From: Robiginitomaculum sp.
GTDB lineage: Bacteria; Pseudomonadota; Alphaproteobacteria; Caulobacterales; Maricaulaceae
Assembly (NCBI GenBank): GCA_002733805.1
Contig: NVXG01000005.1
Coordinates: 37,054-101,053 of the forward strand
Direction of reading: 5' to 3'
DNA: 64,000 bases
Part shown: positions 1 to 42,361 of the stretch, piece by piece
Layout of the letters: each line of letters begins with the position of its first letter
Numbering within the stretch: position 1 is the first letter of the stretch
The notes under the pieces: model-generated
Told to the model about the DNA's origin: nothing
What the model saw: the letters and a program-made list of their open reading frames with translations, nothing else
Databases searched by the model: none
Translations under genes and position numbers: made by a program

Positions 1-993
1 AGGTCTGAGGCCACAATCGGGCACATAGAAAGGGCCATTCGTAAGTTTGAGGAGGCTATGAAATATGTTTCTTTTAAGAGCTTTGATCAAAAACAAGCGA
101 TCCAGTTCAAAGATAAAATGGGTGAGACTGAGCTAGCGCTAGCGAGCATTTTATCAATACTCAGATATGTGCAGTCTTTTTTCAAATGGCTGGCTTTACA
201 ATCTGGGTACAAACGGAAAATACGACTAACGGATGTGGAGTATTTTAATCTTTCAGACAGAGACGTGCGTGCGGCCAGTACTCCTGCCGAAAAGAAATTT
301 CCAACTTTGAAAATGATTGTCAAAGTCGTTAATAATATGCCGACGAGCACAGGTCTTGAATTGCGGAATCGAGCGCTTATTGCCTTTACTGCGATAACAG
401 GCATTCGCGATGGGGCCACAATATCACTGAAGTTGAAACACTTTGATGTTTCCATGAGGCGCGTTCGACAAGACCCCAAAGAGGTGGCTACAAAAAATAG
501 AAAGCTTATCACAACATTTTTGTTCCCTCTGGATGATAGCTTGGAGCAAATTGTGTTGGACTGGGTAAGTTATCTTCGAGAAGAGGTACTGTTTGCTGAC
601 CACGACCCTTTATTTCCAAGTACAATTAGAACTTTAGACGAAAACGACTGTTTTATTGCAGGAGGGCTTTCAAAAGAGCACTGGTCAAATGCTAACTCAA
701 TAAGGAAAATATTCAAGACAGCTTTTTTGGCGGTTGATTTATCGCCCTTCACCCCACATCTTTTTCGAAACATGATTGTTTCTGAGGCATATTTACGGGG
801 GCTATCTGTTGCCCAATTCAAGGCCTGGAGCCAAAATCTGGGTCATGAGGGCGCAATGACCACACTAACCAGCTATGGAACACTCTCTTTGCATGATCAG
901 GCAGAACTTGTGCGAAAATCGGGTCAGGGTTCTAAAGACAGGCCCAAGGTTTTGGAGGAAATCATGGCGATATTGGATGCAAACAAAGAATGA
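1..993 (+). CDS. Tyrosine recombinase/phage integrase family protein, 5' end cut by window edge
   Basis: ORF 58..993 stays open in frame back to position 1 (RSEATIGHIERAIRKFEEAMKYV...). Contains TGIRDG, HLFRNM and LGHEGAMTTLTSYG, resembling the R, HxxR and (L/H)xxY recombinase motifs. Confidence 0.75.
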   Translation, partial: RSEATIGHIERAIRKFEEAMKYVSFKSFDQKQAIQFKDKMGETELALASILSILRYVQSFFKWLALQSGYKRKIRLTDVEYFNLSDRDVRAASTPAEKKFPTLKMIVKVVNNMPTSTGLELRNRALIAFTAITGIRDGATISLKLKHFDVSMRRVRQDPKEVATKNRKLITTFLFPLDDSLEQIVLDWVSYLREEVLFADHDPLFPSTIRTLDENDCFIAGGLSKEHWSNANSIRKIFKTAFLAVDLSPFTPHLFRNMIVSEAYLRGLSVAQFKAWSQNLGHEGAMTTLTSYGTLSLHDQAELVRKSGQGSKDRPKVLEEIMAILDANKE

Positions 994-1234: not shown

Positions 1235-2095
1235 CTATTTATTCCACCCTGGAATTAGTCCCTCCAAGTCAGAAATTACTGATACTTTAATGCACTTTCC
1301 AAGATTTGCCATTAGCTTCATCTTTGCAACGGACTTTATATCCGTCGGAATTGGTTCGGTCACTATTTCGCCCTCCACTGTTTGAATGTAGCCACTGTAC
1401 AAGATTCCTACTAACAAAAAACGCGTGCCCACCGACAAACCATTTGGTGTAGCAAATGCGCCTTCGTTTAGAATAAATACCGGGGAACCCGACGACCCGG
1501 GATAAACCGCAATATCAATGAGGAATTCCCGTTTTCCTTGATAATCAAAGCGATACGGCGTTGCAGTTATTCCTCTTCGAATAACAGGAAAATTGTTGTG
1601 CTCATCGGCTATACCGATTGGATAGCCGACCATGGATATGTCTTCTATCCCACTAAAATTTTCTATGGCATCTTGTGCCGGCACTTCTTGGTCTGAAAGG
1701 CACAGTATGAAGGGTCTCCAACCCTCTTTTCCCATTATATGCGCGATGACATTCGTAAGACAGATGGCAACTAGATCGACGTTTGGGTCAGGGTGACGAA
1801 GAACAGTTAGCTCAGAAATTTTACAATTTATCTGTCGTCCACTTCCTGCCTTTGGGGTCTTGTTTTGGTCTTCTGTTTCGTGGAATTTTAGACCAACAAT
1901 GTGAGCGCCCTCGATAACATGCTTGTTTGTCACAAGCACTGGAGCTTCTTTTCCTTCCTTTTTAAAACAATACAAAAAGCCAGTTCCGCTGCCGGTAAAA
2001 GTTGTACTTTCCGTCTTTGAGGTCAATATTTGAACCGTAATGTAACGGATAATTTCAGTAGGTCGGCTTATATCAATCATTTTTCTAGTTCCCAA
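1235..2095 (-). CDS. Trypsin-like serine protease
   Basis: 286 aa with chymotrypsin-fold triad motifs: VTNKHVIEGA (His), DPNVDLVAI (Asp), YPGSSGSPVF (Ser). Confidence 0.8.
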   Translation of the reverse strand: MGTRKMIDISRPTEIIRYITVQILTSKTESTTFTGSGTGFLYCFKKEGKEAPVLVTNKHVIEGAHIVGLKFHETEDQNKTPKAGSGRQINCKISELTVLRHPDPNVDLVAICLTNVIAHIMGKEGWRPFILCLSDQEVPAQDAIENFSGIEDISMVGYPIGIADEHNNFPVIRRGITATPYRFDYQGKREFLIDIAVYPGSSGSPVFILNEGAFATPNGLSVGTRFLLVGILYSGYIQTVEGEIVTEPIPTDIKSVAKMKLMANLGKCIKVSVISDLEGLIPGWNK

Positions 2096-2503: not shown

Positions 2504-3232
2504 ATGAAATTTTTTATTGCAATAATTTTCTTGTCACTTGCAACACAGGCTATTGCGAAAGCTCCAGAAGAAGTCCAAACGCCACCACAGAGCTTCTTCA
2601 CAGTTGGTCAATTGCTAGTTATGTGCGATGGCGATGAAGCTGCAGGTTACGGATATTGTTCTGGATACATAAAGGGACTCCATGACTCCGCTGAGTTAGA
2701 GACCCTGATTGATTTGCTGCGAGACCCAGAATCAAAAACGACACCGCTATTTGGATGTCTGTCCGACGAAGCAACTACCACATCCGTTATGGAAAATTTT
2801 GTTAAGTGGGCCAAGAACCACCCTGAAAAGACAAACGAATTTGCAATGATCGGAATACAACAATCAGTCGCTAAACAATGGCCCTGCCCCGATATCTCTA
2901 GCCCTGCCCTGATATCTCTAGCCCTGTTCGTCATTGACGGCGATACCGTGCGTCTCGGTGAGGAGCGCATACGCCTGATCGGGATTGATACACCAGAGAT
3001 GAAAGGCCGGGCTGAATGCATCGCTGAACAGCTGCTGGCTGATCAGGCCACCAAGCGCGCCCGCGATCTGTTAGGTGGTCCGGATGTGGTTATCCATCGA
3101 ACGGGCAAGCTGGACAGGTACAAACGTTCACTGGCCACCATCACGGTTGATGGCATGGATTACGGACAGATGATGATTGATGAGGGCTTGGCGGTGAAGT
3201 GGTCAGGGCGGCGTGAGGATTGGTGTGACTAA
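2504..3232 (+). CDS. Secreted Rap1a/Tai-like domain fused to a thermonuclease (SNase-like) domain
   Basis: Signal peptide MKFFIAIIFLSLATQAIA. N-terminal VGQLLVMCDGDEAAGYGYCSGYIKGLHD resembles Rap1a/Tai. C-terminal VIDGDTVRLGEERIRLIGIDTPEMKGRAEC...DRYKRSLATITVDGMDYGQMMIDEGLA is SNase-like. Confidence 0.8.
   Translation: MKFFIAIIFLSLATQAIAKAPEEVQTPPQSFFTVGQLLVMCDGDEAAGYGYCSGYIKGLHDSAELETLIDLLRDPESKTTPLFGCLSDEATTTSVMENFVKWAKNHPEKTNEFAMIGIQQSVAKQWPCPDISSPALISLALFVIDGDTVRLGEERIRLIGIDTPEMKGRAECIAEQLLADQATKRARDLLGGPDVVIHRTGKLDRYKRSLATITVDGMDYGQMMIDEGLAVKWSGRREDWCD
2881..2926 (+). repeat. 20-bp tandem duplication at the domain junction
   Basis: gccctgccccgatatctcta (2881-2900) / gccctgccctgatatctcta (2901-2920) / gccctg. 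Confidence 0.9.
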
Positions 3233-3276: not shown

Positions 3277-4542
3277 TTATCTGCCACGGCTCTTCTCATC
3301 AAATGGTACGACATTAGCGGCTTCATTACCGCCAAGCGCCGCCGCAATTGTATTGCCAATGGTGTTTGCGGCATGCTGCACCGGGTCATTGGCAAGATGG
3401 GCGTAGCGCTGGGTGGTGGAGGTTTGAGTGTGACCAAGAATTGCGCCTAGAACTGGTAAGTTAAACCCACCAGCGACACCAAAGCTGGCAAAGGTGTGGC
3501 GCAAGTCATGCAATCGAACATCCTCAAGCCCGGCCTCTTTACGCACAGCGCGCCAGACCTTGCCTATCCCCTGAAAGTATCCCCCACCAGATATGGCCGG
3601 GAAGACATAGGCACTGTCCGCTATTCTCATAACGTTAGCTAGGATGGTTGCAGCCGCCGGTGTCAGGGGAAAGGTCTTTGCACCGGTTTTTGAATCTTCA
3701 AGACGTACTAGGTTACGCTCAAAGTCGATCTCTGACCATTTTAGCGCCTCAATCTCATTACGGCGCGCCCCAGTGAGCGCCAGCAAGCGAATGATGCTCA
3801 GCCCATGGGCATTGACGCCTTGGTTCTCAGCGGCTGTCAGCGCTACGCCGAGACGTTTTAGTTCAACAGCAGACAAGAAGCGCTCACGCTTGGCTTCCTT
3901 AAATTTTTGTATCCCCCTGCAAACTGTGCTGCCATCAACACGCAATCCCCAGTGTTCAGCCTTACTCAGCATGTGAGAGACTAACGCAAGGCAACGGTTA
4001 GCCTGATATGGCGCATCTCTCATGCTTAGGTGAAAGCGTACTATTTCCGGGCGTTGAATGTCTTTTATTCTAATATGCCCTAAAGCCGGAAGCACATGAA
4101 GACGTAGTTGGCGCTTACTTTCTTCGATTGAACGAGGCTTGTTATGCGCTTCAGCATGATCCCTAATATAACGCGCACTGAACTCAGCCACGGTTTCAGA
4201 CTTGCGATCTTCTTCCAGTTCCCGCGCTGGGTCTTTTCCTGCCTTCACCCGCCCAAGCAAGGTAATGGCTTCATCCCGTGCCGCTTGGGGTGTCCATACC
4301 CCACCGCCTGATCTGGGGTGTCCATGTTGCCCAATAGTAAACCAGCGTTGGTGATTATGAATACGGTATTTCAAGACATAGCTTTTGGTGCCCGCCTTGG
4401 TGGTGCGTAACCCAAAGCCGGGCAGCTCTCTATCCCAAAGCACAGAGTCGGGCGGTGCATTGTCTACCGTGCGTTTTGTTAGCTTGGGTTTCATGGTCTT
4501 ACCTTGGTTGCAAATCGGTTCGTGCAACCACCGTGCAACCAA
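3277..4542 (-). CDS. Tyrosine-type site-specific integrase (DUF4102/P4-type arm-binding domain)
   Basis: MKPKLTKRTVDNAPPDSVLWDRELPGFGLRTTKAGTKSYVLKYR (DUF4102-like), TGARRNEIEALKWSEID, LHDLRHTFAS, LGAILGHTQTSTTQRYAHL. The likely start is the internal Met of MKPKLTKRTVDN (~4494). Confidence 0.9.
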   Translation of the reverse strand: MVARWLHEPICNQGKTMKPKLTKRTVDNAPPDSVLWDRELPGFGLRTTKAGTKSYVLKYRIHNHQRWFTIGQHGHPRSGGGVWTPQAARDEAITLLGRVKAGKDPARELEEDRKSETVAEFSARYIRDHAEAHNKPRSIEESKRQLRLHVLPALGHIRIKDIQRPEIVRFHLSMRDAPYQANRCLALVSHMLSKAEHWGLRVDGSTVCRGIQKFKEAKRERFLSAVELKRLGVALTAAENQGVNAHGLSIIRLLALTGARRNEIEALKWSEIDFERNLVRLEDSKTGAKTFPLTPAAATILANVMRIADSAYVFPAISGGGYFQGIGKVWRAVRKEAGLEDVRLHDLRHTFASFGVAGGFNLPVLGAILGHTQTSTTQRYAHLANDPVQHAANTIGNTIAAALGGNEAANVVPFDEKSRGR

Positions 4543-4642: not shown

Positions 4643-4694
4643 ACTCAGACTACGAATCTGGGGGTCGGGAGTTCGAATCTTCCTCGGCGCGCCA
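4643..4694 (+). other. tRNA-Arg(ACG) 3' fragment, probable att site
   Basis: actcagaCTACGAAtctgggggtcgggagTTCGAATcttcctcggcgcgCCA: anticodon loop CTACGAA, T-loop and CCA present. No 5' half (acceptor/D-arm) upstream. Next to the integrase. Confidence 0.75.
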
Positions 4695-4817
4695 TTTTTC
4701 TGGCGCTAACACGGTGCTGGTTTCTGGTGCTAACGCGGTGCTGGCGCCCGCTACTTGAGCGCGGACTTGGTTCAAGGTTTTACCTCTCACCTACATCATT
4801 CCAACTCATCCGAACAA

Positions 4818-9432: not shown

Positions 9433-10464
9433 CTAAGATGGACTGCCAGAGGTCAGGGATAAAAACACATCTTCGAGATCTGGTTCTTGCGTCTGTAAAT
9501 CCGAAATGGAAATACCGCTGGCCCGAACCTGTTCAATCAACTGCCCGACGCTTTGCGTCCCGGCCCGATACCGAATGTGCAAGGCACCGGCCTCGTCCAG
9601 CTCTGCCTGTAAATCGGACAGGCTTTGTGGGATCTGCTCCAACCTCTCTTTGGGTTGAATGGTCAGGGTTTTATGATCCATACGCTTCAGCAATTTTTCC
9701 TTGGCTTCACAGGCCACAACCTCGCCATGATTGATGATGGCAATGGTATCGCACAGCTCTTGCGCCTCTTCGAGATAATGGGTGGTTAGAATGATGGTCG
9801 CGCCGCGCGCGTTCAACTCGCGCACATAATTCCACAATTGCTTGCGAAGTTCGATGTCCACTCCGGCCGTAGGTTCATCCAGCACCAATACGGGCGGAGA
9901 ATGGACCAATGCTTTGGCCATCAACAATCGTCGCTTCATGCCGCCAGACAGGGACCGGACATAGGCGTTGGCTTTGTCGGCTAGTCCCATGGCCTCGAGG
10001 ATTTCCATGGACCGGCGTTCTTTCTTGGGTACGCCATAAAACCCGGCCTGATATTCCAGACTTTCAATCGGCGTAAAAAACGGGTCCATATTGATCTCTT
10101 GTGGCACCACGCCGATGGCGGCGCGGGCCTGACGCGGATTTTGATCAATATCCACACCCCATATTTCACCGCGCCCGCCGGTTTTCTTTACCAGTCCGGC
10201 AAAGATATTGATCAGGGTCGATTTTCCGGCTCCGTTCGGACCGAGTAATCCAAAAATCGAGCCGCGCCGAATATCCAGACTAACGCCCTTTAGCGCCCGG
10301 ATCGGTGGCAACCCTTTTTGGGCCGGATAGGTTTTTTCCATGTCAAAGGCGCGCAAGGCAAACTCAGGGAGTGTTTCGATCTTGTCTGACAATTTATCCG
10401 CCTCAACCCAAGGCCCGCATTGACCAATGGGCACAGGTGCATAACTATGTGTTTGGCAGTGCAA
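9433..10464 (-). CDS. ABC transporter ATP-binding protein
   Basis: Walker A GLLGPNGAGKST, signature LSGGMKRRLLMAKAL, Walker B VLVLDEPTAGVD. Start may be internal. Confidence 0.9.
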   Translation of the reverse strand: MHCQTHSYAPVPIGQCGPWVEADKLSDKIETLPEFALRAFDMEKTYPAQKGLPPIRALKGVSLDIRRGSIFGLLGPNGAGKSTLINIFAGLVKKTGGRGEIWGVDIDQNPRQARAAIGVVPQEINMDPFFTPIESLEYQAGFYGVPKKERRSMEILEAMGLADKANAYVRSLSGGMKRRLLMAKALVHSPPVLVLDEPTAGVDIELRKQLWNYVRELNARGATIILTTHYLEEAQELCDTIAIINHGEVVACEAKEKLLKRMDHKTLTIQPKERLEQIPQSLSDLQAELDEAGALHIRYRAGTQSVGQLIEQVRASGISISDLQTQEPDLEDVFLSLTSGSPS

Positions 10465-10488
10465 TCACAAGCAGGCGGAGCTGAAAAA

Positions 10489-10674
10489 ATGGCCAATACC
10501 GAAAACAACCCGCGCAGCGAGGCTTTGGACGTCTTTGTAGATACCGCGCGCGTTTCCTGCGATGGCGGCACATCCGGCCATCCCAAAGTGTATTATGATC
10601 TGAATGAAGATGGTGAGGCGTGGTGTTTTTACTGCTCCCGGCATTTCATCCGCCAAAGCGCAAAAGCAGATTAG
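10489..10674 (+). CDS. Zinc-finger (zf-CHCC type) domain protein
   Basis: MANTENNPRSEALDVFVDTARVSCDGGTSGHPKVYYDLNEDGEAWCFYCSRHFI: C-x(n)-H-x(n)-CxxC pattern. Confidence 0.75.
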   Translation: MANTENNPRSEALDVFVDTARVSCDGGTSGHPKVYYDLNEDGEAWCFYCSRHFIRQSAKAD

Positions 10675-10707
10675 TCACCGAATTTTACTACGGGACCGAG
10701 CTAAAAT

Positions 10708-13488
10708 ATGGCCATCACCAAACCAATGGACGAAAACAGCCACCTGATTCTGGTGGATGGTTCGGCTTATATTTTTCGCGCCTACCATGCCTTGCCGCCT
10801 TTGACCCGAAAGTCGGATGGCATCCCGGTCGGGGCAGTCGCCGGGTTTTGTAACATGCTATGGAAGCTGACGGAGGACACGCGAGACGAAGATCACGCCA
10901 CCCATTTTGCGGTTATATTTGATGCAAAAGGCAAGACATTTCGCAACGAGATTTATGACCAATACAAGGCACACCGCCCGCCCGCTCCGGAAGACTTGGT
11001 TCCGCAATTTGCCTTGGTTCGTGATGCCACCCGTGCTTTTGGCCTGCCCGCGATTGAAGAGCCGGGTTTTGAGGCGGATGATCTAATTGCCACTTACGCC
11101 TTTGAGGCAGAAAAGCGTGGTGCAACGGTAACCATTATCTCGTCGGATAAAGACCTGATGCAATTGGTTACCGACAAAACCGATATGTTGGACCCAATGA
11201 AAAACCTGCGTATTCGGGCCGAACAGGTGCGGGACAAATTTGGCGTAGGGCCGGATCGGGTCATTGACGTACAAGCCTTAGCTGGAGACAGCGCTGACAA
11301 CGTACCGGGCGTTCCGGGGATCGGCGTAAAAACCGCAGCAGCTTTGGTTGAGGAATTTGGTGATCTTGAAAGTATTTTGGCTGGTGCCCACACGATCAAA
11401 CAAAACAAACGCCGTGAAAACCTGATTGAATTTGCCGATCTGGCCCGGATCAGCTTGGAACTAGTTACGTTACGCAAAGATACCCCGATGCCCGATCCTC
11501 TGGATGATCTGGGTTGTTGCGATGTAGAATCAGAGGTTTTGCTGTCTTTCTTGCAAGATATGGAGTTTTCAACCCTGACACGCCGGGTGCAGGCGGCGTT
11601 TGCTCTGCCAGCCGACCCGACAGAATTTGAAGACACCTCTACACCGGTGATCTCGGATGAGGGATACGAATGTGTAACCGACATGAAGGTGCTGCACAGT
11701 TGGATAGACAAGGCCTATAAAGCCGGACGGGTTGCAGTGGATACCGAAACGGATCGTTTGTCGGCCACCCATTCCAAACTGGTCGGTATTTCCCTGTCTC
11801 ATGCACCGGGGTTGGCTTGTTACATTCCATTGGGACATACCGGGGCCGGGGATTTGATGTCGGTCGTACCGGCGCAACTGGGCCTGAAAGAAGCACTAGA
11901 CGCGTTGGCTCCTTTGTTACGTGATCCCAATGTGCTGAAGATCGGCCAAAATCTGAAATATGATATGGGGGTGTTTCACCGCTATGGGATTGATCTAACG
12001 CCAATTGATGACACGATGTTGTTGTCTTACGTATTGGATGGCGGCAAACACCGTCATGGTATGGACGCGTTATCAGAACGGTATTTGGGCCATGTACCTA
12101 TTCCGTTCAAACAGGTTTGCGGCGTTGGCAAATCACAAATCAGTTTTGCCCAAGTTGATCTGGAACCGGCCACTAAGTATGCGGCCGAAGATGCCGATGT
12201 CACTCTTCGTTTGTGGCAGATATTAAAACCAAGATTAGCCGCCGAGAAAATGAGCGTTGTTTATGAAACGCTGGAGCGGACCATGCCCCGGGTTTTGTCA
12301 GATATGGAACTGGCTGGAATACGGGTGGATCGGGCCGAGCTGTCGCGGCTTTCGTTGAAATTTGCACAAAAAATGGCCGAGTTTGAGGATGAAGCCAAAG
12401 CACTGGCCAAACGCTCGTTTAATCTGGCCTCGCCCAAGCAATTGGGTGAAATTCTGTTTGATGAAATGGGGCTTTCCGGTGGTAAAAAAACCAAAACTGG
12501 GGCCTGGAAAACCGATGCCAAGGTGTTGGAACAATTGTCAAATGACGGCCATGAATTGCCCAAGACCATTTTGGGCTGGCGGCAATTACAGAAACTGAAG
12601 AGCACGTATACAGATGCGTTGGGTGCGGCGGCAGACCCCGAAACCTCGCGGGTGCATACCTCTTTCATGTTGGCCTCGACCACAACGGGCCGCCTTGCGT
12701 CCAGTGATCCCAATTTGATGAATATTCCAATTCGCACCGAAGAGGGTCGCAAAATCCGCGCCGCCTTTGTGGCGGAGAAGGGTAAGTTGTTGCTCAGTGC
12801 TGACTATAGCCAGATCGAATTGCGCGTGTTGGCCCATATTGCCGAGGTGGGAACCTTGCGTCAGGCATTTGCCGATGGACTGGATATTCATGCCATGACC
12901 GCCTCCGAGATATTCGGTGTGCCGATTGAGGGTATGGACCCAGGTATCCGTCGCCAAGCCAAGGCAATTAATTTTGGAATTATCTACGGTATTTCCGCAT
13001 TCGGGTTGGCGATCCAACTTGATATTTCACGAAGCGAAGCAGCTGATTATATCAAAGCCTATTTTGCCAAATTCCCGGGCATTCGGGATTATATGGAAGC
13101 CACCAAGGCCAGTGCTCGTGAAAACGGCTATGTCAGCACCTTGTTTGGGCGAAAATGCTGGTGCCAACAGATCAATGACAAAAACCCGATGAACCGAAAT
13201 TTTGCGGAACGCCAAGCGATCAATGCACCCATTCAAGGCACAGCGGCCGACATTATGCGCCGCGCTATGATTCGAATGCCACAAGCCCTGCAAAGCTCTG
13301 GTCTGTCGGCTACCATGTTGTTGCAGGTCCATGATGAATTGGTGTTTGAAGTAAAAGAAGCTGAAGTGGATCAACTGGCCGAACTGGCCGGGAATGTTAT
13401 GCAAAATGCCTGCGCGCCGGCGCTTGAACTATGCGTGCCACTGGTGGTCGATAGTGGTGCCGGGCCAAATTGGGATGTAGCACACTAG
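10708..13488 (+). CDS. polA: DNA polymerase I
   Basis: 926 aa: 5'-nuclease N-terminus (LILVDGSAYIFRAYHALPP), 3'-5' exonuclease (VAVDTETD), polymerase motifs (LLSADYSQIELRVLAHI, RRQAKAINFGIIYGIS, LLQVHDELVFEV). Confidence 0.98.
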   Translation: MAITKPMDENSHLILVDGSAYIFRAYHALPPLTRKSDGIPVGAVAGFCNMLWKLTEDTRDEDHATHFAVIFDAKGKTFRNEIYDQYKAHRPPAPEDLVPQFALVRDATRAFGLPAIEEPGFEADDLIATYAFEAEKRGATVTIISSDKDLMQLVTDKTDMLDPMKNLRIRAEQVRDKFGVGPDRVIDVQALAGDSADNVPGVPGIGVKTAAALVEEFGDLESILAGAHTIKQNKRRENLIEFADLARISLELVTLRKDTPMPDPLDDLGCCDVESEVLLSFLQDMEFSTLTRRVQAAFALPADPTEFEDTSTPVISDEGYECVTDMKVLHSWIDKAYKAGRVAVDTETDRLSATHSKLVGISLSHAPGLACYIPLGHTGAGDLMSVVPAQLGLKEALDALAPLLRDPNVLKIGQNLKYDMGVFHRYGIDLTPIDDTMLLSYVLDGGKHRHGMDALSERYLGHVPIPFKQVCGVGKSQISFAQVDLEPATKYAAEDADVTLRLWQILKPRLAAEKMSVVYETLERTMPRVLSDMELAGIRVDRAELSRLSLKFAQKMAEFEDEAKALAKRSFNLASPKQLGEILFDEMGLSGGKKTKTGAWKTDAKVLEQLSNDGHELPKTILGWRQLQKLKSTYTDALGAAADPETSRVHTSFMLASTTTGRLASSDPNLMNIPIRTEEGRKIRAAFVAEKGKLLLSADYSQIELRVLAHIAEVGTLRQAFADGLDIHAMTASEIFGVPIEGMDPGIRRQAKAINFGIIYGISAFGLAIQLDISRSEAADYIKAYFAKFPGIRDYMEATKASARENGYVSTLFGRKCWCQQINDKNPMNRNFAERQAINAPIQGTAADIMRRAMIRMPQALQSSGLSATMLLQVHDELVFEVKEAEVDQLAELAGNVMQNACAPALELCVPLVVDSGAGPNWDVAH

Positions 13489-34189: not shown

Positions 34190-35220
34190 TGGTCCGGTTG
34201 TCGGCATTGTTACTGATTGTGCTGAGCTTCGGATTATACCTGTTTGGGGCCGGTTCTGTCCGTGCAGCGGGACAGGAACTTTGCAATGAAACCAGCTATA
34301 TCTTGTATTCCGCCATTGCGTTTCCCGAACATGGCGAACTGATTTCCGAAGGCTGGAACCGGTTGCGCCCCGGTGAGTGCCGCACGGTATTGCCCGCGCC
34401 CATTCCGCCCGGAGATTATTATGTTTTTGCCCATTCATCGCCGTCGCATCGCGGCGGGATACGCCAATGGAGTGGCCCAACCCCGCTTTGCGTTGATATT
34501 GGTCATTTTTCAGTGGCGGCCATGGCCAATTGCCAAAACCTGGGTCTGGAAGCGCGCAGTTTTCATGTGATTGATGGCAACCCACCAGATGGCAGGCGCA
34601 CGATCTTTACCGAAACCGGGGAGTTTGGAACCCGGGCTGGGTTGGCCGGGTTGCAGCGCCTATTGGGCGATAATGGTTTGAATGTAAGCAGAGTGGATGG
34701 CTATGCCGGGCGGCGTACCCAGATTGCGGTGCGTAGTTATCTCAAACAGATGAGAGTGGCCGAGCGCCCCAGCGATGCCAGTTTGATGGATATGCTGGAA
34801 AAGACCGGAGCCAAGGCAATTCGCGCCACCGGGTTGGAGGTCTGTAATCAGGCGGATGAACGCATCTGGACGGCCTACGCCCACCGGCGGGGCAATCAAT
34901 GGGAAAGTCGTGGTTGGTGGTCCTTGGCCAGTGGCGCTTGCATGCAATTGATCAATCAGCCCATTTCCAAACGCGACAAATACTACATTTATGCCGGCCT
35001 GGAGCAACCTGGTGGCGAAACAGGCTTGGTGAATGCCAAAGAGACTTTTTGTATTTCACAGGTTAAGTTCTCAATATTTGGTCGTCATGATTGTGGCATT
35101 AGGGGGTATCTGGAAACCCCGTTTGCCAAGGTTGAGATGAGCAAGGAGAAATTGACCAAAGTGATTTTTACAGCAGAAGATTTTGGGGCAAACAAAACCT
35201 CCGGGTTGGTGGTGCAATGA
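34189..35220 (+). CDS. Secreted protein with two DUF1036-like domains around a peptidoglycan-binding-like segment
   Basis: LCNETSYILYSAIAFPEHGELISEGWNRLRPGECRTVL and VCNQADERIWTAYAHRRGNQWESRGWWSLASGACMQLI are two copies of one pattern; LQRLLGDNGLNVSRVDGYAGRRTQIAVRSYLKQMRV lies between. Confidence 0.75.
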   Translation: MVRLSALLLIVLSFGLYLFGAGSVRAAGQELCNETSYILYSAIAFPEHGELISEGWNRLRPGECRTVLPAPIPPGDYYVFAHSSPSHRGGIRQWSGPTPLCVDIGHFSVAAMANCQNLGLEARSFHVIDGNPPDGRRTIFTETGEFGTRAGLAGLQRLLGDNGLNVSRVDGYAGRRTQIAVRSYLKQMRVAERPSDASLMDMLEKTGAKAIRATGLEVCNQADERIWTAYAHRRGNQWESRGWWSLASGACMQLINQPISKRDKYYIYAGLEQPGGETGLVNAKETFCISQVKFSIFGRHDCGIRGYLETPFAKVEMSKEKLTKVIFTAEDFGANKTSGLVVQ

Positions 35221-35915
35221 TCCGCCGGTTGCAAGCCAGCCGCAATTGGGTGTTTGATCTGGACAATACCTTGTACCCGGCCGAGTGCGATCTGTTCGCG
35301 CAGATCGACCAACGCATGACCAAGTTTGTGTCTGAATATCTGCAAATGCATCCGGAAAAAGCCCGCAAGCTCCAAAAAAAGTATTATCTGGAACACGGCA
35401 CCACGTTGAACGGTTTGATGGAAAATCACCGGATCGAGCCAGAAGAATTCCTTGAGTTTGTCCACGATATTGACCATTCGGTCTTGCCGCACAGCCCTGA
35501 TCTGCGCCGGGCCATCGAGGCGCTGCCGGGCCGCAAAATGGTATTCACCAACGGCTCCAATGGTCATGCAACTTCGGTTTTAGCGGCCCTAGGGCTACAG
35601 GATATTTTTGACGGCATTGTCGACATCGAAGCCACTGGATTTATACCCAAACCGTCCCAACCGGCCTATGACCATCTGGTGAAACACTTTGATCTTGTGC
35701 CCGATCAGTCGGTATTATTCGAAGACCTGTCGCGTAATTTATTGCCAGCCCATGACATGGGATTTGTGACCGTTTTGGTTTATTCGAACAAGGACTGGAG
35801 CCATGAACCCGAAGCGGCCCGTCCGGCCAGCTCTAGCGCTACAGAACAACACGTACATTTCTCTACCGATAACCTAACCGAATTCCTGGTCAATTTGAGC
35901 GGAGAGCCGTCATGA
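35217..35915 (+). CDS. HAD family pyrimidine 5'-nucleotidase-like hydrolase
   Basis: [51 protein letters not shown]. Confidence 0.9.
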
Positions 35916-36724
35916 ACCAACAACAGGCTAAATCCATTATCGAAGCGGCATCTGCTGGTGAGGCCATTGATGAGGCGGTGGTTCGAGAAGCGGTGGATGC
36001 AGCCTTTGGTTGGCTTGACGATGGCTCGGCGCGGGTGGCTGAACCTCTGCCCAGCGGGGAGTGGCAGGTCAATGTCTGGCTGAAACAAGCCGTGTTGCTG
36101 AGCTTTGGCCTGTTCCCGTCGGCATTGGTTGAGCGCGGTGATCTGGGCAATAATTTTGACAAAATGCCGCGCAAAACCGAAGGCTGGACCGAAGCAGACT
36201 TTGCCAATGCAGGGTTTCGCATGGTGCCGCCGGCCAATGTGCGGCGCGGGGCATTTATTGGCCGCGACGTGGTTTTGATGCCGTCTTTTGTCAATGTCGG
36301 AGCCTATGTCGGCAATGGCACCATGATCGACACCTGGGCCTCGGTTGGCTCATGCGCGCAAGTCGGGGCCAATTGCCATATCTCGGCTGGTGCCGGGATC
36401 GGCGGCGTGCTGGAGCCGCTACAGGCCAATCCGGTGATCATCGAGGACAATTGCTTTATCGGGGCGCGCTCCGAAGTGGTCGAAGGCATGTTTATCGGCG
36501 AAGGCTCAGTGCTGGCCATGGGCGTGTTCATCACCAAAAGCACCAAAATTGTCGATCGGGCGACCGGCGAGATCAGCTATGGCCGGGTGCCACCATACTC
36601 TGTCGTGGTGCCGGGCGCGTTGCCCGACCCCAAAGGCGGACCGTCATTGGCCTGTGCCGTGATCATCAAAACCGTCGACGCTCAAACCCGCGCCAAAACC
36701 GCCATCAATGATCTGTTGCGGTAG
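35912..36724 (+). CDS. dapD: 2,3,4,5-tetrahydropyridine-2,6-dicarboxylate N-succinyltransferase
   Basis: Hexapeptide-repeat enzyme: [42 protein letters not shown]...[32 protein letters not shown]. Confidence 0.97.
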
Positions 36725-36754
36725 TTTATTCGGATAGCCGCCTTCGCGGTTCCC

Positions 36755-36840
36755 GGATTTAGTCCGGGGTCCAGACCAACTAGATGCAAATGGCAATCAG
36801 CAAAGCTGGACCCCGGCTCGAAGGCCGGGGACCGGGGTGG
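36755..36840. repeat. Inverted intergenic repeat (ccggggtccag / ctggaccccgg)
   Basis: Arms visible in the dapD-DUF885 spacer; related string at ~38820-38842. Confidence 0.6.
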
Positions 36841-36858
36841 GGTGTGTCCATGCCGCTT

Positions 36859-36975
36859 GCCGATGCTTCGAGGCCGCTTCGCGGCACCTCAGCATGAGGT
36901 GGTTTTTGAAACGAACCCAACCCACACCTCCCACCTCATGCTGAGGTGCGACCAAAGGGAGCCTCGAAGCATCGG
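36859..36975. repeat. Palindromic intergenic repeat, copy 2
   Basis: gccgatgcttcgagg...cacctcagcatgagg / cctcatgctgaggtg...cctcgaagcatcggc, with a spacer nearly identical to copy 1. Confidence 0.85.
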
Positions 36976-37071
36976 CGAGCGTCGAGAACCGGTTTGTCAA
37001 TTGCTGAAGTACTGTGTTACTGCTTGAACAACAAAACAGGGCCACATTGGCTGCGGTTCAGGGGAACTCAC

Positions 37072-38805
37072 ATGACAATCAAAAATCTTTTATTGGCTAC
37101 GTCAATTGCTGCGCTCGCCGTGTTGGGCGGTTGCGCGCCTGCTGATGAAAACGCATCGGCTCCGGAGCAAATTCAGCCCACGACCCAGTGGAGCACTTTT
37201 CGTGCGGCATTTTTGGACGAGTATTTTCAGGTGAACCCGACCTTTGCGGTGTATCAAGGCAAACACGAATTTGACAGTCAATTGCCCGATTGGAGCAAAC
37301 CGGGTCTCAATTATCAGATCAAAAGCCGCCAGCAAGCCATTGCAGACGCCTAAGCCTTGAACGACACAAACTGGAGCGAAGCCGACAAGTTTGAACGGAA
37401 TTATTTAATTGCCACCTTACAAGGTGAATTGTTCTGGTTGGTCGAGGCCGATCAAATGCACAAAAACCCAAGATATTATCTGGGGGCGCTTGATCCGAAT
37501 GTGTATATCGCACGGCCCTATGCCGATGCTGAAACCCGGATGAAAGCGTTTATTACCTATGCGAAAAACGTACCCTTGGCCGCCGCGCAGATCGAAGCCA
37601 ATTTACAATTGCCACTGCCGGAAACCTTCCTGAAATTAGGCCAAGCCGGATTTGGTGGCTTTGCCAACTATTATTCGGGCGATGCCAAACTGGCATTTGC
37701 CGATGTAGACAATGAGCAATTGCAAGCTGAGTTTGACCAAGTAGCTGCCGCTGCGGCCACCGCCATGCAAAAGCTGTCTGATCATATAGGCTCAGTACCC
37801 GCCACGGCGGACGGCTTTGCGCTGGGCGCTACGAACTTTTCCCAAATGGTGGCCAGCACCGAAGGGGTGGACATTCCGTTGGAAGAACTAAAAGCCATTG
37901 GGTTGGCTGATCTGCAGCGCAACCAGCAGGCATTGGCCAATGCCTGTGCTGATTTTGCGCCAGATGCGTCGATCGTTGATTGCATGGCCAAAATGGCGGC
38001 GAACAAGCCAACCAATGGCCCGGTGCAAGAAGCCCGCGATCAATTGCCGCCTTTGCGCGAATTTTTGGTGACCGAGGATTTGGTCAGCATTCCAGGAACC
38101 GAATTGGCGCTGGTCGAAGAATCGCCGCCCTATAATCGCCAGAACTCGGCCTATATCGACATTCCCGGCCCGTATGAAACCGGCCTGCCTTCGGTGTATT
38201 ATATCTCGCCGCCCGACCCGAGCTGGGACGAGGCGACCCGCGCCGCCTATATTCCCGGTAAAATGGACCTGTTGGGCACGTCGATCCATGAAGTATGGCC
38301 CGGTCATTTCTTAAACTTCCTGCATGCCAATCGGGCCGGTTCAATCTTTGGCAAATTGTTTGTCGGCTATGCCTTCGCCGAAGGGTGGGCGCACTATAGC
38401 GAAGAAATGATGTTTGAGGCTGGATTGCACGCCGGAAACCCGGAAGCTAAAATCGGCCAACTGGCCAATGCCTTGCTGCGAAACTGTCGGTATTTGTCGG
38501 CTATTGGCTTGCATGCGGAAGGCATGAGCGTCGAGCAGAGCTATCAGATGTTCCGCAATGAATGTTATCAAGATGTCGGTAATGCGCGCCAACAAGCGGC
38601 ACGCGGCACCTATGATCCGGCCTACTTGAATTACACCATGGGCAAATTGATGATCCGCAAATTGCGCGAAGACTGGACAGCAACCCGCGGCGGACGGGCC
38701 GCTTGGAAAGCCTTTCACGATGAGTTTTTGTCCTATGGTGGTCCGCCCATTCCCATGGTGCGGCAATCCATGATGAATGAGGCCGAGGCTAAGGCCAAGT
38801 TCTAG
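37072..38805 (+). pseudogene. DUF885 family lipoprotein/peptidase interrupted by one in-frame TAA (37351-37353)
   Basis: 37072..37353 and 37357..38805 are in the same frame. N-terminus LLATSIAALAVLGGCAP is a lipobox; HEVWPGHFLNFLHANR and AFAEGWAHYSEEMM are in the second part. Confidence 0.8.
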
Positions 38806-38860
38806 GCGGCGGTCCCGGTCCCCGCCCCAGAGCCGGGGTCCAGTTCTTTTATGTTACGAT

Positions 38861-38960
38861 CCCCTCATCCCGACCTTCTCCCCACGGGAGAAGGGGCGCA
38901 GCTGGAATGCTCGGGGCAATAGTACTCCTTCTCCCGTCCGGGAGAGGCTTGGGGTGAGGG
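38861..38960. repeat. Inverted repeat between DUF885 and mlaC-like genes
   Basis: cccctcatcccgaccttctccccacgggagaagg ... ccttctcccgtccgggagaggcttggggtgagggg. Confidence 0.7.
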
Positions 38961-38992
38961 GCAACCATCAAATTCAATTACCGCAGTGCGGG

Positions 38993-39601
38993 TTATGGCT
39001 TTGCGGTCTTAGCCCGCAACATATCGGCAGCGGATGCAACCTTACCGCCATGATTGGCGATGTAAGCGGTGATTTCGCTGCGTTGTTGTACGGCTAGCCA
39101 AATGCCGAAGGCTTCCAGATCAATCACTTTGGAAACGCCGTCTTTGGTCCGAACCCGCCAGCGTACTTTTAAGGGTTTATCCAGCGCCCCGCCTGAAATG
39201 GTGGTGCTGACCACGGCATCGCCCGGCTTGCGGTCGACCGACCCGGTTACCAGAAACGTCTCGCCGCCATAGCGGGTTAGGCTGTCTTGGTAAATGCCTT
39301 TGGCATAATCAGTAAAGGCGCTCTGAAAATCGGCATAAACAGCGGCATCCAAATTCCGGGCGTATTTGCCCAAGGAGAAGCGCGATACTTTGCGAATATC
39401 GACAATCTGGTCAATGAACTGGCCAAATTGTTCGCTGCGTTGAGTTTCGCTTAAGCCGGTATTGCTTAAAATATCCAACCCGGCACCGGCTTGCTCACGC
39501 ACAAAGTCTTCTTCGGCTGGTCCGGCAAAGGCACTAGGTGCGACCAGCAGCAGAGCGCTGACCATCAGGGTGCGCGGGATCAATTTGCTAAAAATACTCA
39601 T
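38993..39601 (-). CDS. MlaC/Ttg2D-like phospholipid-binding protein
   Basis: Signal peptide; FGQFIDQIVDIRKVSRFSLGKYARNLDAAVYADFQSAFTDYAKGIYQDSLTRYGGETFLVTGS. Paired with MlaA. Confidence 0.85.
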   Translation of the reverse strand: MSIFSKLIPRTLMVSALLLVAPSAFAGPAEEDFVREQAGAGLDILSNTGLSETQRSEQFGQFIDQIVDIRKVSRFSLGKYARNLDAAVYADFQSAFTDYAKGIYQDSLTRYGGETFLVTGSVDRKPGDAVVSTTISGGALDKPLKVRWRVRTKDGVSKVIDLEAFGIWLAVQQRSEITAYIANHGGKVASAADMLRAKTAKP

Positions 39602-39614
39602 GTTTCATGAACCT

Positions 39615-40343
39615 TTATTCGTCATCAAATTCGTCAAAGTCGGGCAGATCATCGACATCGAGCTCTCCGTCGCGAATGGCATCGGCTCGCGATTGCTCAT
39701 ACAAGGAGCGATAGGCCGCATATAGATCGAGTGAATTTTCTTCTAAATTGTCGATCAGTCCGATGGCATTGGTGCGTACGTCCACTCCATTCACCGTAAA
39801 CCGGGTCAGTTGTACGATCGTTTCACCGCGATACCGGACCACGGCAAATGGATGGCTGAACACATCAACCACCAATCCGGCAGTATCGCGCACATTGGAT
39901 GGTCCTAAAAATGGCAGGACGACATAGGTGCCATTGCCCGCACCCCACACGGCCAATGTCTGGCCGAAATCTTCGGTACGTAGCGGAATGCCCATACCTG
40001 TGGCTGGGTCAAATAATCCGGCGATCCCAATGGTCGAATTGACCACAAATCGCAACAAGGTCTGGGCCGCGCCACCGGGTTTTCCCTGCAAAACATTGTT
40101 CATCAGGTCAGTCGGGGCGCGTAAATTATCCAGTACATTGTGCACGCCATCGCGAATGGGTTTTGGCGTTACATCGCGATATCCTTTGACGAATGGTTCG
40201 ATGAGTGCCGTATCCACCGAAGCATTGGCATCAAACATGGCATGGTTATACCCGGCCAAAGGATCATCTGGCGAGGCGGTGGCACAAGCGGTGAGACCTG
40301 AGCCAACTATAAGAAAACAAACGGAAAAAAACTTATAAAACAC
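39615..40343 (-). CDS. MlaA/VacJ family lipoprotein
   Basis: Lipobox GLTAC; DPLAGYNHAMFDANASVDTALIEPFVKGYRDVTPKPIRDGVHNVLDNLRAPTDLMNNVLQGK. Confidence 0.93.
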   Translation of the reverse strand: MFYKFFSVCFLIVGSGLTACATASPDDPLAGYNHAMFDANASVDTALIEPFVKGYRDVTPKPIRDGVHNVLDNLRAPTDLMNNVLQGKPGGAAQTLLRFVVNSTIGIAGLFDPATGMGIPLRTEDFGQTLAVWGAGNGTYVVLPFLGPSNVRDTAGLVVDVFSHPFAVVRYRGETIVQLTRFTVNGVDVRTNAIGLIDNLEENSLDLYAAYRSLYEQSRADAIRDGELDVDDLPDFDEFDDE

Positions 40344-40458
40344 GGGGGAAATACCTCTGAACGGGCGATTATTGTCTGCATTTGGAATGCAGACATTGGC
40401 ATTTTATAAGTATTTTTCAAGTTTATCCGGGACATTTCACGAAAAATTGTTGATAGAG

Positions 40459-40478
40459 ATATAAAGATATCTTTATAT
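40459..40478. promoter_or_regulatory. SahR-type operator upstream of sahR-metF-metH
   Basis: Perfect 20-bp palindrome atataaagatatctttatat, ~30 bp before the regulator start. Confidence 0.8.
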
Positions 40479-40508
40479 AGGGGCGGGAAGCGAAAGGAAA
40501 AACTACTC

Positions 40509-41462
40509 ATGGACCATATTGTTCGGGCAATGCGGGCAATCGCCGAACCGACACGGATGCGTATTTTATGCGTGTTGGGTCGAGGCGAGTTGACGGTAAG
40601 CGAGCTGACCCGAATTTTGGGTCAAAGCCAGCCCCGGGTGTCGCGCCATGTGGGGTTGTTGGTTGATGCTGGATGTATTGAACGGTTGCCTGAAGGGACC
40701 TGGGTATTTTTGCGGTTGGTCTCCGACAATGCGATTTCCGATCTGGTTGGTGCGGCCATTGCGGCAGTTCCGTCCGATGACCGGACCATTGGTCGCGATG
40801 CAGAACGGCTTGAACTGGTCAGTGCCGAACGGGCAACCAATGCGGCCCGTTATTTTCGCGAATCCGCCGCCGACTGGGATCAAATTCGGTCCTTGTATCT
40901 GGCCGAAGATGCAGTGGAGCAAGCCTTGCTGGCGGCGATTGGTGAGGGTCCGTTTGAGCGGATGTTGGATATTGGTACCGGTTCGGGCCGTATATTGGAG
41001 ATTTTAAGCGGGCGTATTGCGCAGGGGTTGGGCATTGATCTCAGCCATGAAATGCTCAATCTGGCTCGTTCGAAACTGCAAGGCAAATCCAATTGCAAAG
41101 TACAACAGGCCGATTTGTTCTCACTCCCAGTGGCGGCAACAAGTCAGGATCTGGTGACGTTGCATCTGGTGTTGCACCATTTGGCCAACCCGGAAGCGGC
41201 TCTGATCGAGGCGAGCCGGGTATTAAGGCCGGGGGGTACTTTGGCTCTGGTTGATTTTGCACCGCATCAATACGAATTTTTGCGTGATAAACACGCGCAC
41301 CGCCGTCTCGGGTTTACCAATCAGGAAATTGACGGATGGCTGCAGAGCGCCGGACTAATCGTCAGTAATTGTCAGGCGCTTGCGCCAGCTGATCGACCCG
41401 AGGGCCAGCCATCACTGACCGTCAAAGTCTGGACAGCGAAGCACAAAGGAGAGGCGGCATGA
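40509..41462 (+). CDS. sahR: ArsR-type HTH fused to SAM methyltransferase domain, SahR-like
   Basis: RAIAEPTRMRILCVLGRGELTVSELTRILGQSQPRVSRHVGLL plus MLDIGTGSGRILEIL. Overlaps metF. Confidence 0.85.
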   Translation: MDHIVRAMRAIAEPTRMRILCVLGRGELTVSELTRILGQSQPRVSRHVGLLVDAGCIERLPEGTWVFLRLVSDNAISDLVGAAIAAVPSDDRTIGRDAERLELVSAERATNAARYFRESAADWDQIRSLYLAEDAVEQALLAAIGEGPFERMLDIGTGSGRILEILSGRIAQGLGIDLSHEMLNLARSKLQGKSNCKVQQADLFSLPVAATSQDLVTLHLVLHHLANPEAALIEASRVLRPGGTLALVDFAPHQYEFLRDKHAHRRLGFTNQEIDGWLQSAGLIVSNCQALAPADRPEGQPSLTVKVWTAKHKGEAA

Positions 41463-42361
41463 CCCAAGCTATTGCCCGGGGAAATTCTGGAAACCTTCGG
41501 CCCATCGAAGTGTCCTTTGAGTTTTTCCCACCCAAAAATCAGGCCATGGAAGATCGGCTATGGCAATCGGTGCGAAAACTTGCCCCCTTGCGGCCCAATT
41601 TTATGTCGGTGACCTATGGTGCGGGCGGCTCCACCCGGGATCGCACTCGCAAAACCGTAGTGCAAATGGCTCAGGAAACTGGCATCGAGGTGGCGGCTCA
41701 CCTGACCTGTGTTGAAGCCAGCGCCAAAGAAATTGACGATGTGGTCAAAACTTACAAATCGGCCGGTATCAACCATATTGTAGCACTTCGTGGCGATCCC
41801 ACTTCGGGCATTGATGGAAAATATCAACCGACAGCCGACGGATATTCGTATGCGTCGGATCTAGTGGCTGCCTTGAAGAAATCACCAGATACCATTGTCA
41901 GTGTGGCTGCGTATCCGGAGCGCCATCCTGAATCGTCCAATTGGCAGGTCGAGATGGACAATTTGAAACGCAAAGTCGATGCCGGGGCCGATCAGGCCAT
42001 TACCCAGTTTGGGTTTGAACCGGGGCAAATGATTGATTTTCTGGATCGGGTGCGCGGAGCTGGGATCAACATCCCGATTGTGCCGGGCATTATGTTGCAA
42101 CCTAATTTTGACGGGCTGGTTCGCATGTCAAAAATGTGCGGGGCCAGCATCCCGAAATGGATGTTCAATTTGTTTGAGGGAACCAAGGATGATCTGGTCA
42201 CCCGTCAATTACTGACCGCTAATATAGCCGCCGAATACTGCACGGCTTTGCAGGCGGCTGGATTTCGTCGCTTTCATTTCTATACCCTGAACAATGCCGA
42301 TTTTGCCTATGCAACCTGCCGGGTGTTGGGCTTAAAACCGCACACCGGAGATGCCAAATGA
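41459..42361 (+). CDS. metF: Methylenetetrahydrofolate reductase
   Basis: VSFEFFPPKNQAMEDRLWQSV...MSVTYGAGGSTRDRTRKTV...HIVALRGDP. Confidence 0.96.
   Translation: MTQAIARGNSGNLRPIEVSFEFFPPKNQAMEDRLWQSVRKLAPLRPNFMSVTYGAGGSTRDRTRKTVVQMAQETGIEVAAHLTCVEASAKEIDDVVKTYKSAGINHIVALRGDPTSGIDGKYQPTADGYSYASDLVAALKKSPDTIVSVAAYPERHPESSNWQVEMDNLKRKVDAGADQAITQFGFEPGQMIDFLDRVRGAGINIPIVPGIMLQPNFDGLVRMSKMCGASIPKWMFNLFEGTKDDLVTRQLLTANIAAEYCTALQAAGFRRFHFYTLNNADFAYATCRVLGLKPHTGDAK

What the first reader, a model, noticed from the sequence alone, without database searches (positions are those of the whole stretch)
2504..3232. Rap1a/Tai-like domain fused to thermonuclease by a 20-bp frame-shifting duplication
The domain junction sits exactly on an imperfect 20-bp tandem duplication (2881-2920). 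Removing one copy makes the upstream frame read WPCPDISSPVRH followed by TGA, so the duplication shifts the first ORF into the SNase frame. The nuclease domain then inherits the upstream signal peptide. This looks like recent birth of a fused secreted nuclease by slippage. Rap1a/Tai proteins are known as T6SS immunity proteins in Serratia, so pairing with a nuclease is intriguing.
Basis: partly seen in the sequence, partly recalled or inferred. Interest (0 to 1): 0.65.

Follow-up and report, generated by a model that had tools for sequence, protein, structure and literature searches.

The report
Island-borne fused Rap1a–thermonuclease gene
On a small mobile DNA island in a bacterium, a gene for a Rap1a-type protein exported from the cytoplasm and a gene for a small DNA-cutting enzyme have been joined into one reading frame at a 20-base repeat, giving a fused protein that I found nowhere else, while the same two genes sit side by side, unfused, in three other bacteria.

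Summary
ORF 2504-3232 (+) encodes a complete Rap1a domain and an SNase domain with its catalytic residues intact. The domain border coincides with a 20-bp tandem duplication (2881-2900/2901-2920, 19/20 identical, plus six bases of a third copy), the only such duplication in the 101-kb contig. Deleting one copy ends the Rap1a frame at WPCPDISSPVRH*, as stated. The junction lies directly after the last conserved Rap1a cysteine, near which the aligned homologues stop, and at the leader of a small secreted SNase, whose start codon is gone. No fusion homologue was found in the genomes, plasmids, phages or viral contigs searched. New here: (1) the gene is cargo of a 7.1-kb island in tRNA-Arg(ACG), with perfect 51-bp att repeats and a phage-defence candidate (PDC-S45); (2) unfused Rap1a and SNase genes are direct co-directional neighbours in 3 of 85 other Rap1a loci (about 0.08 expected), so the pairing is not random. 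Not supported: T6SS immunity (no VipB or Tae4 found in this genome), 'recent' (the copies already differ), and a functional two-ORF single-copy ancestor (its SNase frame would lack ATG/GTG/TTG). Most likely product: an exported two-domain nuclease. Activity and the Rap1a domain's role are untested.

The parts
2504..3232 (+). Fused gene: signal peptide - Rap1a domain - short linker - SNase domain (242 aa)
   Evidence: ORF; Pfam PF18602 at residues 33-128 and PF00565 at 155-232; AlphaFold models with Foldseek matches to Serratia Rap1a 3zfi/4bi8 and staphylococcal nuclease
2504..2560 (+). Signal-peptide-like N-terminus MKFFIAIIFLSLATQAIAK
   Evidence: sequence; no predictor was run; Rap1a homologues in alignment A1 also begin with hydrophobic leaders
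2600..2887 (+). Rap1a domain, residues 33-128, with conserved Cys41, 52, 85 and 128
   Evidence: Cys85/Cys128 take the positions of the Serratia Rap1a disulfide Cys78-Cys122 (PMC3852654)
2881..2926 (+). 20-bp tandem duplication (2.3 copies) at the domain junction; stands where the Rap1a stop and SNase start would be expected
2903..2929 (+). Stretch encoding PALISLALF, resembling the short hydrophobic leader of small SNases (MILEFFLAASLITVIDGDT; IPAAFFAVLLVIDGDT)
2930..3229 (+). SNase domain with D147, R157, D162, T163, E165 and R208 (staphylococcal D21, R35, D40, T41, E43, R87)
3277..4542 (-). Tyrosine integrase of the island, convergent with the fused gene
   Evidence: Pfam PF00589 E 4.5e-23, Arm-DNA-bind_3; same-genus homologue 78% identical in G130
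4646..4696 (+). attR: 51-bp 3' fragment of tRNA-Arg(ACG), identical to the 3' part of the intact tRNA at contig 34576-34626 (outside the window, window -2477 to -2427)
1235..2095 (-). Trypsin-like protease, phage-defence candidate PDC-S45; co-cargo of the island
   Evidence: PADLOC PDC-S45 E 6.2e-91; phrog_7688 E 5.3e-60; Trypsin_2
58..993 (+). Second tyrosine recombinase (an upstream in-frame start lies at window -89)
   Evidence: PF00589 E 2.4e-9; ORF extent

Best explanation
The gene is an in-frame fusion of a Rap1a-family gene and a small exported thermonuclease gene, carried on a tRNA-Arg genomic island. The Rap1a stop codon and the SNase start codon have been replaced by a junction containing a 20-bp tandem duplication. 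The product is most likely exported by Sec through the Rap1a signal peptide. It would fold as a disulfide-held Rap1a helical bundle (Cys85-Cys128), followed by about 12 flexible residues and an SNase OB-fold whose catalytic residues are all present. It would act as a nuclease in the periplasm or outside the cell, with the Rap1a half acting in cis as dimeriser or modulator. Shown: ORF, domains, repeat, island, absence of fusion relatives in the sets searched, recurrent Rap1a-SNase neighbourhood. Inferred: export, activity, role of the Rap1a half, and that a pre-existing neighbour pair was the precursor.
For: Both domains score above Pfam cut-offs in one ORF. AlphaFold on alignment A5 gives high confidence for both domains and the lowest confidence at 132-138. 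Foldseek matches Serratia Rap1a (prob 1.00, TM 0.76) and staphylococcal nuclease. Active-site residues are kept. All Rap1a homologues in alignment A1 end within about 12 residues after [F/W/Y]PC, and small SNases have a short leader just before VIDGDT, so each half is complete to its natural edge. Rap1a and SNase are direct co-directional neighbours in G202 (SNase GTG inside the Rap1a FPC codons), G696 and G1011 (3-bp gap, SNase first): 3 of 85 loci against 0.08 expected. Island: intact tRNA-Arg plus 51-bp att repeat plus integrase.
Against: No close relative of either half exists in the data (best Rap1a 27% identity in G462; closest SNases about 43-53%), so selection on the fused form cannot be measured. 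The single-copy precursor would leave the SNase without a standard start codon, so one duplication does not convert two working genes into this one. The neighbour pairs are rare, unfused, and in one case in the reverse order. The genome is a 115-contig draft with 4.6% estimated contamination, and no reads were available.
Confidence: 0.6

Rival explanations
1. Recombination scar: illegitimate recombination joined two island modules of different origin (left cargo with Rap1a, right SNase plus integrase) inside the ends of two genes, and the 20-bp duplication arose in the same repair event. There was no ancestral Rap1a-SNase pair in this lineage.
For: The best change point of composition within the ORF is at 2924 (LR 18.0, above all 500 codon shuffles, maximum 17.1), and the best GC change point of the whole island is at 2879 (43% left, 52% right). 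The GCCCTG motif recurs at the joint. No standard SNase start exists in the one-copy form.
Against: The same low-GC Rap1a / high-GC SNase contrast is present in the G202, G696 and G1011 pairs (53/69, 55/60, 49/60%), so the step may be a property of the two families. Landing exactly on both natural gene edges by chance is less likely than starting from neighbours.
Confidence: 0.35
2. The fused ORF is a non-functional by-product: a decaying cargo gene of a mobile island that happens to be open.
For: The fusion was seen once only, its position is on a mobile island, and the normal gene boundary has been lost. The G696 neighbour Rap1a reading frame itself looks disrupted.
Against: No stop or frameshift in 242 codons; all four Rap1a cysteines and all SNase catalytic residues kept; a good Shine-Dalgarno sequence and a signal-like N-terminus.
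Confidence: 0.2
3. Assembly artefact: the true sequence has one repeat copy, or reads from two strains were joined at a short repeat.
For: The draft has 115 contigs and 4.6% estimated contamination, and strain mixing could affect a short repeat.
Against: The two copies differ at one site, which is not how a simple duplicated-read error looks. The 46-bp array is shorter than a usual short read, and the contig is 101 kb long with clean att structure around it.
Confidence: 0.08
4. T6SS effector-immunity arrangement: the Rap1a half is immunity, the nuclease half an effector, as in Serratia Ssp1/Rap1a.
For: Fold match to Serratia Rap1a. Rap1a is a periplasmic immunity protein there (PMC3533786, PMC3852654).
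Against: No VipB (TssC) or Tae4 homologue was found in this 94.7%-complete genome, nor in G696 or G1011. Rap1a neutralises a peptidoglycan amidase, not a DNase. Rap1a-domain proteins also occur in phages and on plasmids. A Sec signal peptide is not the T6SS route for the nuclease.
Confidence: 0.04

Closest known systems
Rap1a/Tai4 periplasmic immunity family (PF18602; Serratia marcescens Rap1a, PDB 3zfi, 4bi8)
   Same: Domain score above the gathering cut-off, same helical fold (Foldseek prob 1.00, TM 0.76), signal peptide, and the Cys pair of the structural disulfide
   Different: About 14% identity; no T6SS or Tae4 found in the genome; fused to a nuclease instead of standing alone next to an amidase effector
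Thermonuclease / SNase family (PF00565), small secreted alphaproteobacterial and phage type
   Same: OB-fold, all catalytic residues, C-terminal W-x-G-R-R-x-D-W-C-like end, up to about 50% identity to the closest examples
   Different: Lacks its own start and leader; exported, if at all, by the Rap1a signal peptide
Unfused Rap1a-SNase neighbour genes of G202, G696 and G1011 (found here)
   Same: Same two families, same strand, adjacent or overlapping
   Different: Separate reading frames; order reversed in G1011; no repeat
tRNA-integrated genomic islands with tyrosine integrase
   Same: Intact tRNA-Arg on one side, 51-bp 3' fragment on the other, integrase next to the fragment
   Different: Very small (7.1 kb) and carrying this fusion plus a PDC-S45 defence candidate

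Membership tests
Rap1a (PF18602) | Profile match above the curated gathering score | tested here: met
   52.4 bits against 27.7
Rap1a (PF18602) | Rap1a fold with the Cys78-Cys122-type disulfide pair and N-terminal signal peptide | tested here: met
   Foldseek 3zfi/4bi8 prob 1.00; invariant C85 and C128. The bond itself was not observed, and the signal peptide was judged by eye.
T6SS immunity protein (Tai4/Rap1a in the functional sense) | Cognate Tae4-type effector and a T6SS in the genome | tested here: not met
   No PF05943 or PF14113 match in the 94.7%-complete genome
T6SS immunity protein (Tai4/Rap1a in the functional sense) | Binds and blocks its effector | not testable with these tools
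   needs protein
SNase / thermonuclease (PF00565) | Profile match above the gathering score | tested here: met
   43.6 bits in the whole protein and 45.4 bits for the half alone, against 21
SNase / thermonuclease (PF00565) | Catalytic residues D21, R35, D40, T41, E43, R87 | tested here: met
   D147, R157, D162, T163, E165, R208 by alignment
SNase / thermonuclease (PF00565) | Ca2+-dependent nuclease activity | not testable with these tools
   needs an assay
tRNA-integrated genomic island | Intact tRNA at one end, direct repeat of its 3' end at the other, integrase inside | tested here: met
tRNA-integrated genomic island | Empty site in a close relative | not tested

The most novel reading that the evidence does not exclude
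Rap1a-fold proteins in some mobile elements are partners (inhibitors, chaperones or scaffolds) of exported SNase nucleases, not of T6SS amidases. The fused gene is the covalent form of that pair: a self-regulated exported nuclease that cuts incoming DNA at the cell envelope as part of an island with defence cargo.
Probability: 0.22. Interest if true: 0.68.

Novelty: new variant of a known kind. Interest (0 to 1): 0.42.

Why it matters
It documents a domain combination not found in the sets searched, with its birth scar still readable, and shows that Rap1a genes and secreted nuclease genes are neighbours more often than chance allows. If the pairing is functional, the family name 'immunity protein' would be too narrow, and the partner of many orphan Rap1a proteins outside T6SS genomes would become testable.

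Tried and rejected
Repeat as an integrase core or multi-copy element: the junction sequence occurs once in the genome, and the att core is the tRNA 3' end instead. H49-H54 plasmid hits spanning both domains looked like fusions but are RepA plus SNase. SNase as a fixed neighbour of this integrase type: the 78%-identical integrase of G130 has no SNase next to it, and none of the other SNase loci has a near integrase of this type except viral L025. Viral-contig scans with three Rap1a proteins and with an unknown island protein gave no relatives, and a diverse Rap1a alignment was too variable to scan with. A first AlphaFold run without SNase rows modelled the nuclease half badly; the second alignment fixed this. 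A mixed alignment with many SNases misaligned the Rap1a rows and was not used for Rap1a. Papers: none linking Rap1a with thermonuclease in the library.

Full report
OBSERVATION. The open reading frame 2504-3232 (+) has 242 codons and begins with ATG after AGGAAGGAAG. Pfam finds Rap1a (PF18602) over residues 33-128 with 52.4 bits (cut-off 27.7) and SNase (PF00565) over residues 155-232 with 43.6 bits (cut-off 21). A direct repeat 2881-2900/2901-2920, 19 of 20 bases identical, lies at the border. TRF extends the array to 2881-2926 and gives it the highest score in the window. It is the only tandem duplication of period 12-60 and at least 95% identity in the 101-kb contig. Deleting one copy turns the Rap1a frame into WPCPDISSPVRH*. 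The sequence around the junction occurs once in the genome.

WHAT THE JUNCTION REMOVED. In an alignment of 21 Rap1a homologues from other genomes every protein ends within about twelve residues after [F/W/Y]PC, most within three. The window's P127-C128 are exactly these residues, and the repeat starts at that codon pair. On the other side, small SNases of the same type carry a short hydrophobic leader directly before VIDGDT, for example MILEFFLAASLI-TVIDGDTV in G374 and (M)IPAAFFAVLL-VIDGDTV in Dinoroseobacter phage R4C; the window reads SPALISLALF-VIDGDTV. Both halves are therefore complete to their natural edges; only the stop of the first and the start of the second are gone. In the single-copy version the SNase frame has no ATG, GTG or TTG after its upstream stop, so a lone duplication does not turn two working genes into this fusion unless the SNase used a rare start. 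The two repeat copies already differ at one base, which is silent in copy 1 (CCC/CCT, Pro129), so 'recent' is not shown.

INTEGRITY OF THE PRODUCT. All four conserved Rap1a cysteines are kept. In Serratia Rap1a a disulfide joins Cys78 in the alpha2-alpha3 loop to Cys122 near the C-terminus (PMC3852654); Cys85 and Cys128 occupy the same places in the model. The SNase residues equivalent to D21, R35, D40, T41, E43 and R87 are D147, R157, D162, T163, E165 and R208. AlphaFold with alignment A5 gives mean pLDDT 81.6, below 50 only at residues 132-134 and 136-138 and moderate in the leader; pTM 0.52 means that the relative placement of the domains is not determined. Foldseek finds Serratia Rap1a first for the model built on Rap1a rows (3zfi and 4bi8, prob 1.00) and staphylococcal nuclease first for the A5 model.

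CONTEXT. The contig left of the window holds an intact tRNA-Arg(ACG) (contig 34548-34624), and window 4646-4696 repeats 51 bases covering its 3' part perfectly. Next to that fragment lies a tyrosine integrase (3277-4542, -). The element is thus a 7.1-kb island (contig 34576-41698, window -2477 to 4645). It also carries a second tyrosine recombinase, two HTH proteins and a trypsin-like protease (1235-2095, -) that matches PADLOC's phage-defence candidate PDC-S45 at E 6e-91. The closest SNase by score in the class sample, in G374, lies about 1 kb from the same tRNA-Arg(acg), beside what look by eye like the same flanking peptidase and gamma-glutamyltransferase-like genes, which suggests a shared integration hotspot.

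RELATIVES. Among 137 genomes of the family, 385 of the class, 881 plasmid records, 18 phage records and the IMG/VR and GTDB scans, every significant match covered one half only, or the SNase half with a short extension into the linker. No fusion was found. But unfused Rap1a and SNase genes are direct co-directional neighbours in three genomes. In G202 the SNase GTG start overlaps the Rap1a FPC codons. In G696 the SNase follows the Rap1a domain, whose own 5' end looks frame-disrupted. In G1011 the SNase ends 3 bp before the Rap1a start. That is 3 of 85 inspected Rap1a loci; at 58 SNases per 182 Mb in a set of 34 genomes, 0.08 would be expected within 1.5 kb (Poisson P about 8e-5). Seven further plasmid and phage Rap1a loci had none. 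The loci are not all independent and the tally was made after the first case was seen, so the figure is indicative.

ORIGIN. Two scenarios remain. In one, neighbouring or overlapping genes, as in G202, were fused by the duplication plus at least one further change. In the other, recombination joined two island modules and left the duplication. Composition changes most sharply at 2924 within the ORF and at 2879 within the whole island, which favours a junction of modules, but the same contrast between Rap1a and SNase occurs in the three neighbour pairs, which weakens it. I lean slightly to fused neighbours. The confidence of 0.35 given to the recombination rival is about origin; it shares the product and most of the function with the best explanation.

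FUNCTION. The simplest reading is a Sec-exported nuclease with the Rap1a domain attached in place of the SNase leader. A T6SS role is unlikely: neither VipB (TssC) nor Tae4 was found in this 94.7%-complete genome, nor in G696 or G1011; G202 has both, but far from its pair. Rap1a-domain proteins also occur in phages. Whether Rap1a modulates the nuclease, in cis here and in trans in the neighbour pairs, is an inference that the proposed assays would settle.

VERDICT. Observation confirmed; interpretation partly supported; a new variant (domain fusion) of known families, of moderate interest, with a recurrent gene pairing that may matter more than the fusion itself.

Noticed in passing
1235-2095 (-): Trypsin-like protease strongly matching PADLOC PDC-S45 (E 6e-91) and phrog_7688, an untested phage-defence candidate next to the fused gene.
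   Followed up: partly
window -2477 to 4696: Complete small (7.1 kb) island in tRNA-Arg(ACG) with 51-bp perfect att repeats and two tyrosine recombinases.
   Followed up: yes
4697-4744: 24-bp tandem repeat (two copies, 91%) directly behind the attR end of the island.
   Followed up: no
L130 (G374) 10344-12894: The closest SNase by score in the class sample sits near the same tRNA-Arg(acg) with what look like the same flanking peptidase and gamma-glutamyltransferase-like genes: a possible shared integration hotspot.
   Followed up: partly
L172 664-1767; L127 minus strand about 10180-10977; L074 minus strand about 966-1800: Unfused SNase and Rap1a genes as direct neighbours in three other genomes, in both orders.
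   Followed up: partly
L193 595-936: Dinoroseobacter phage R4C encodes a small SNase overlapping the end of its integrase gene, annotated as hypothetical protein.
   Followed up: no
L201 1483-1809; L202 1444-1839; BFVD entries X2KQV6, A0A7D5JCW4: Rap1a-domain proteins encoded by phages, where no T6SS is expected.
   Followed up: no
L126 16040-17047 (window -2013 to -1006): 335-aa island protein without a Pfam family; weak match to phrog_13283 (E 2.7e-6).
   Followed up: no
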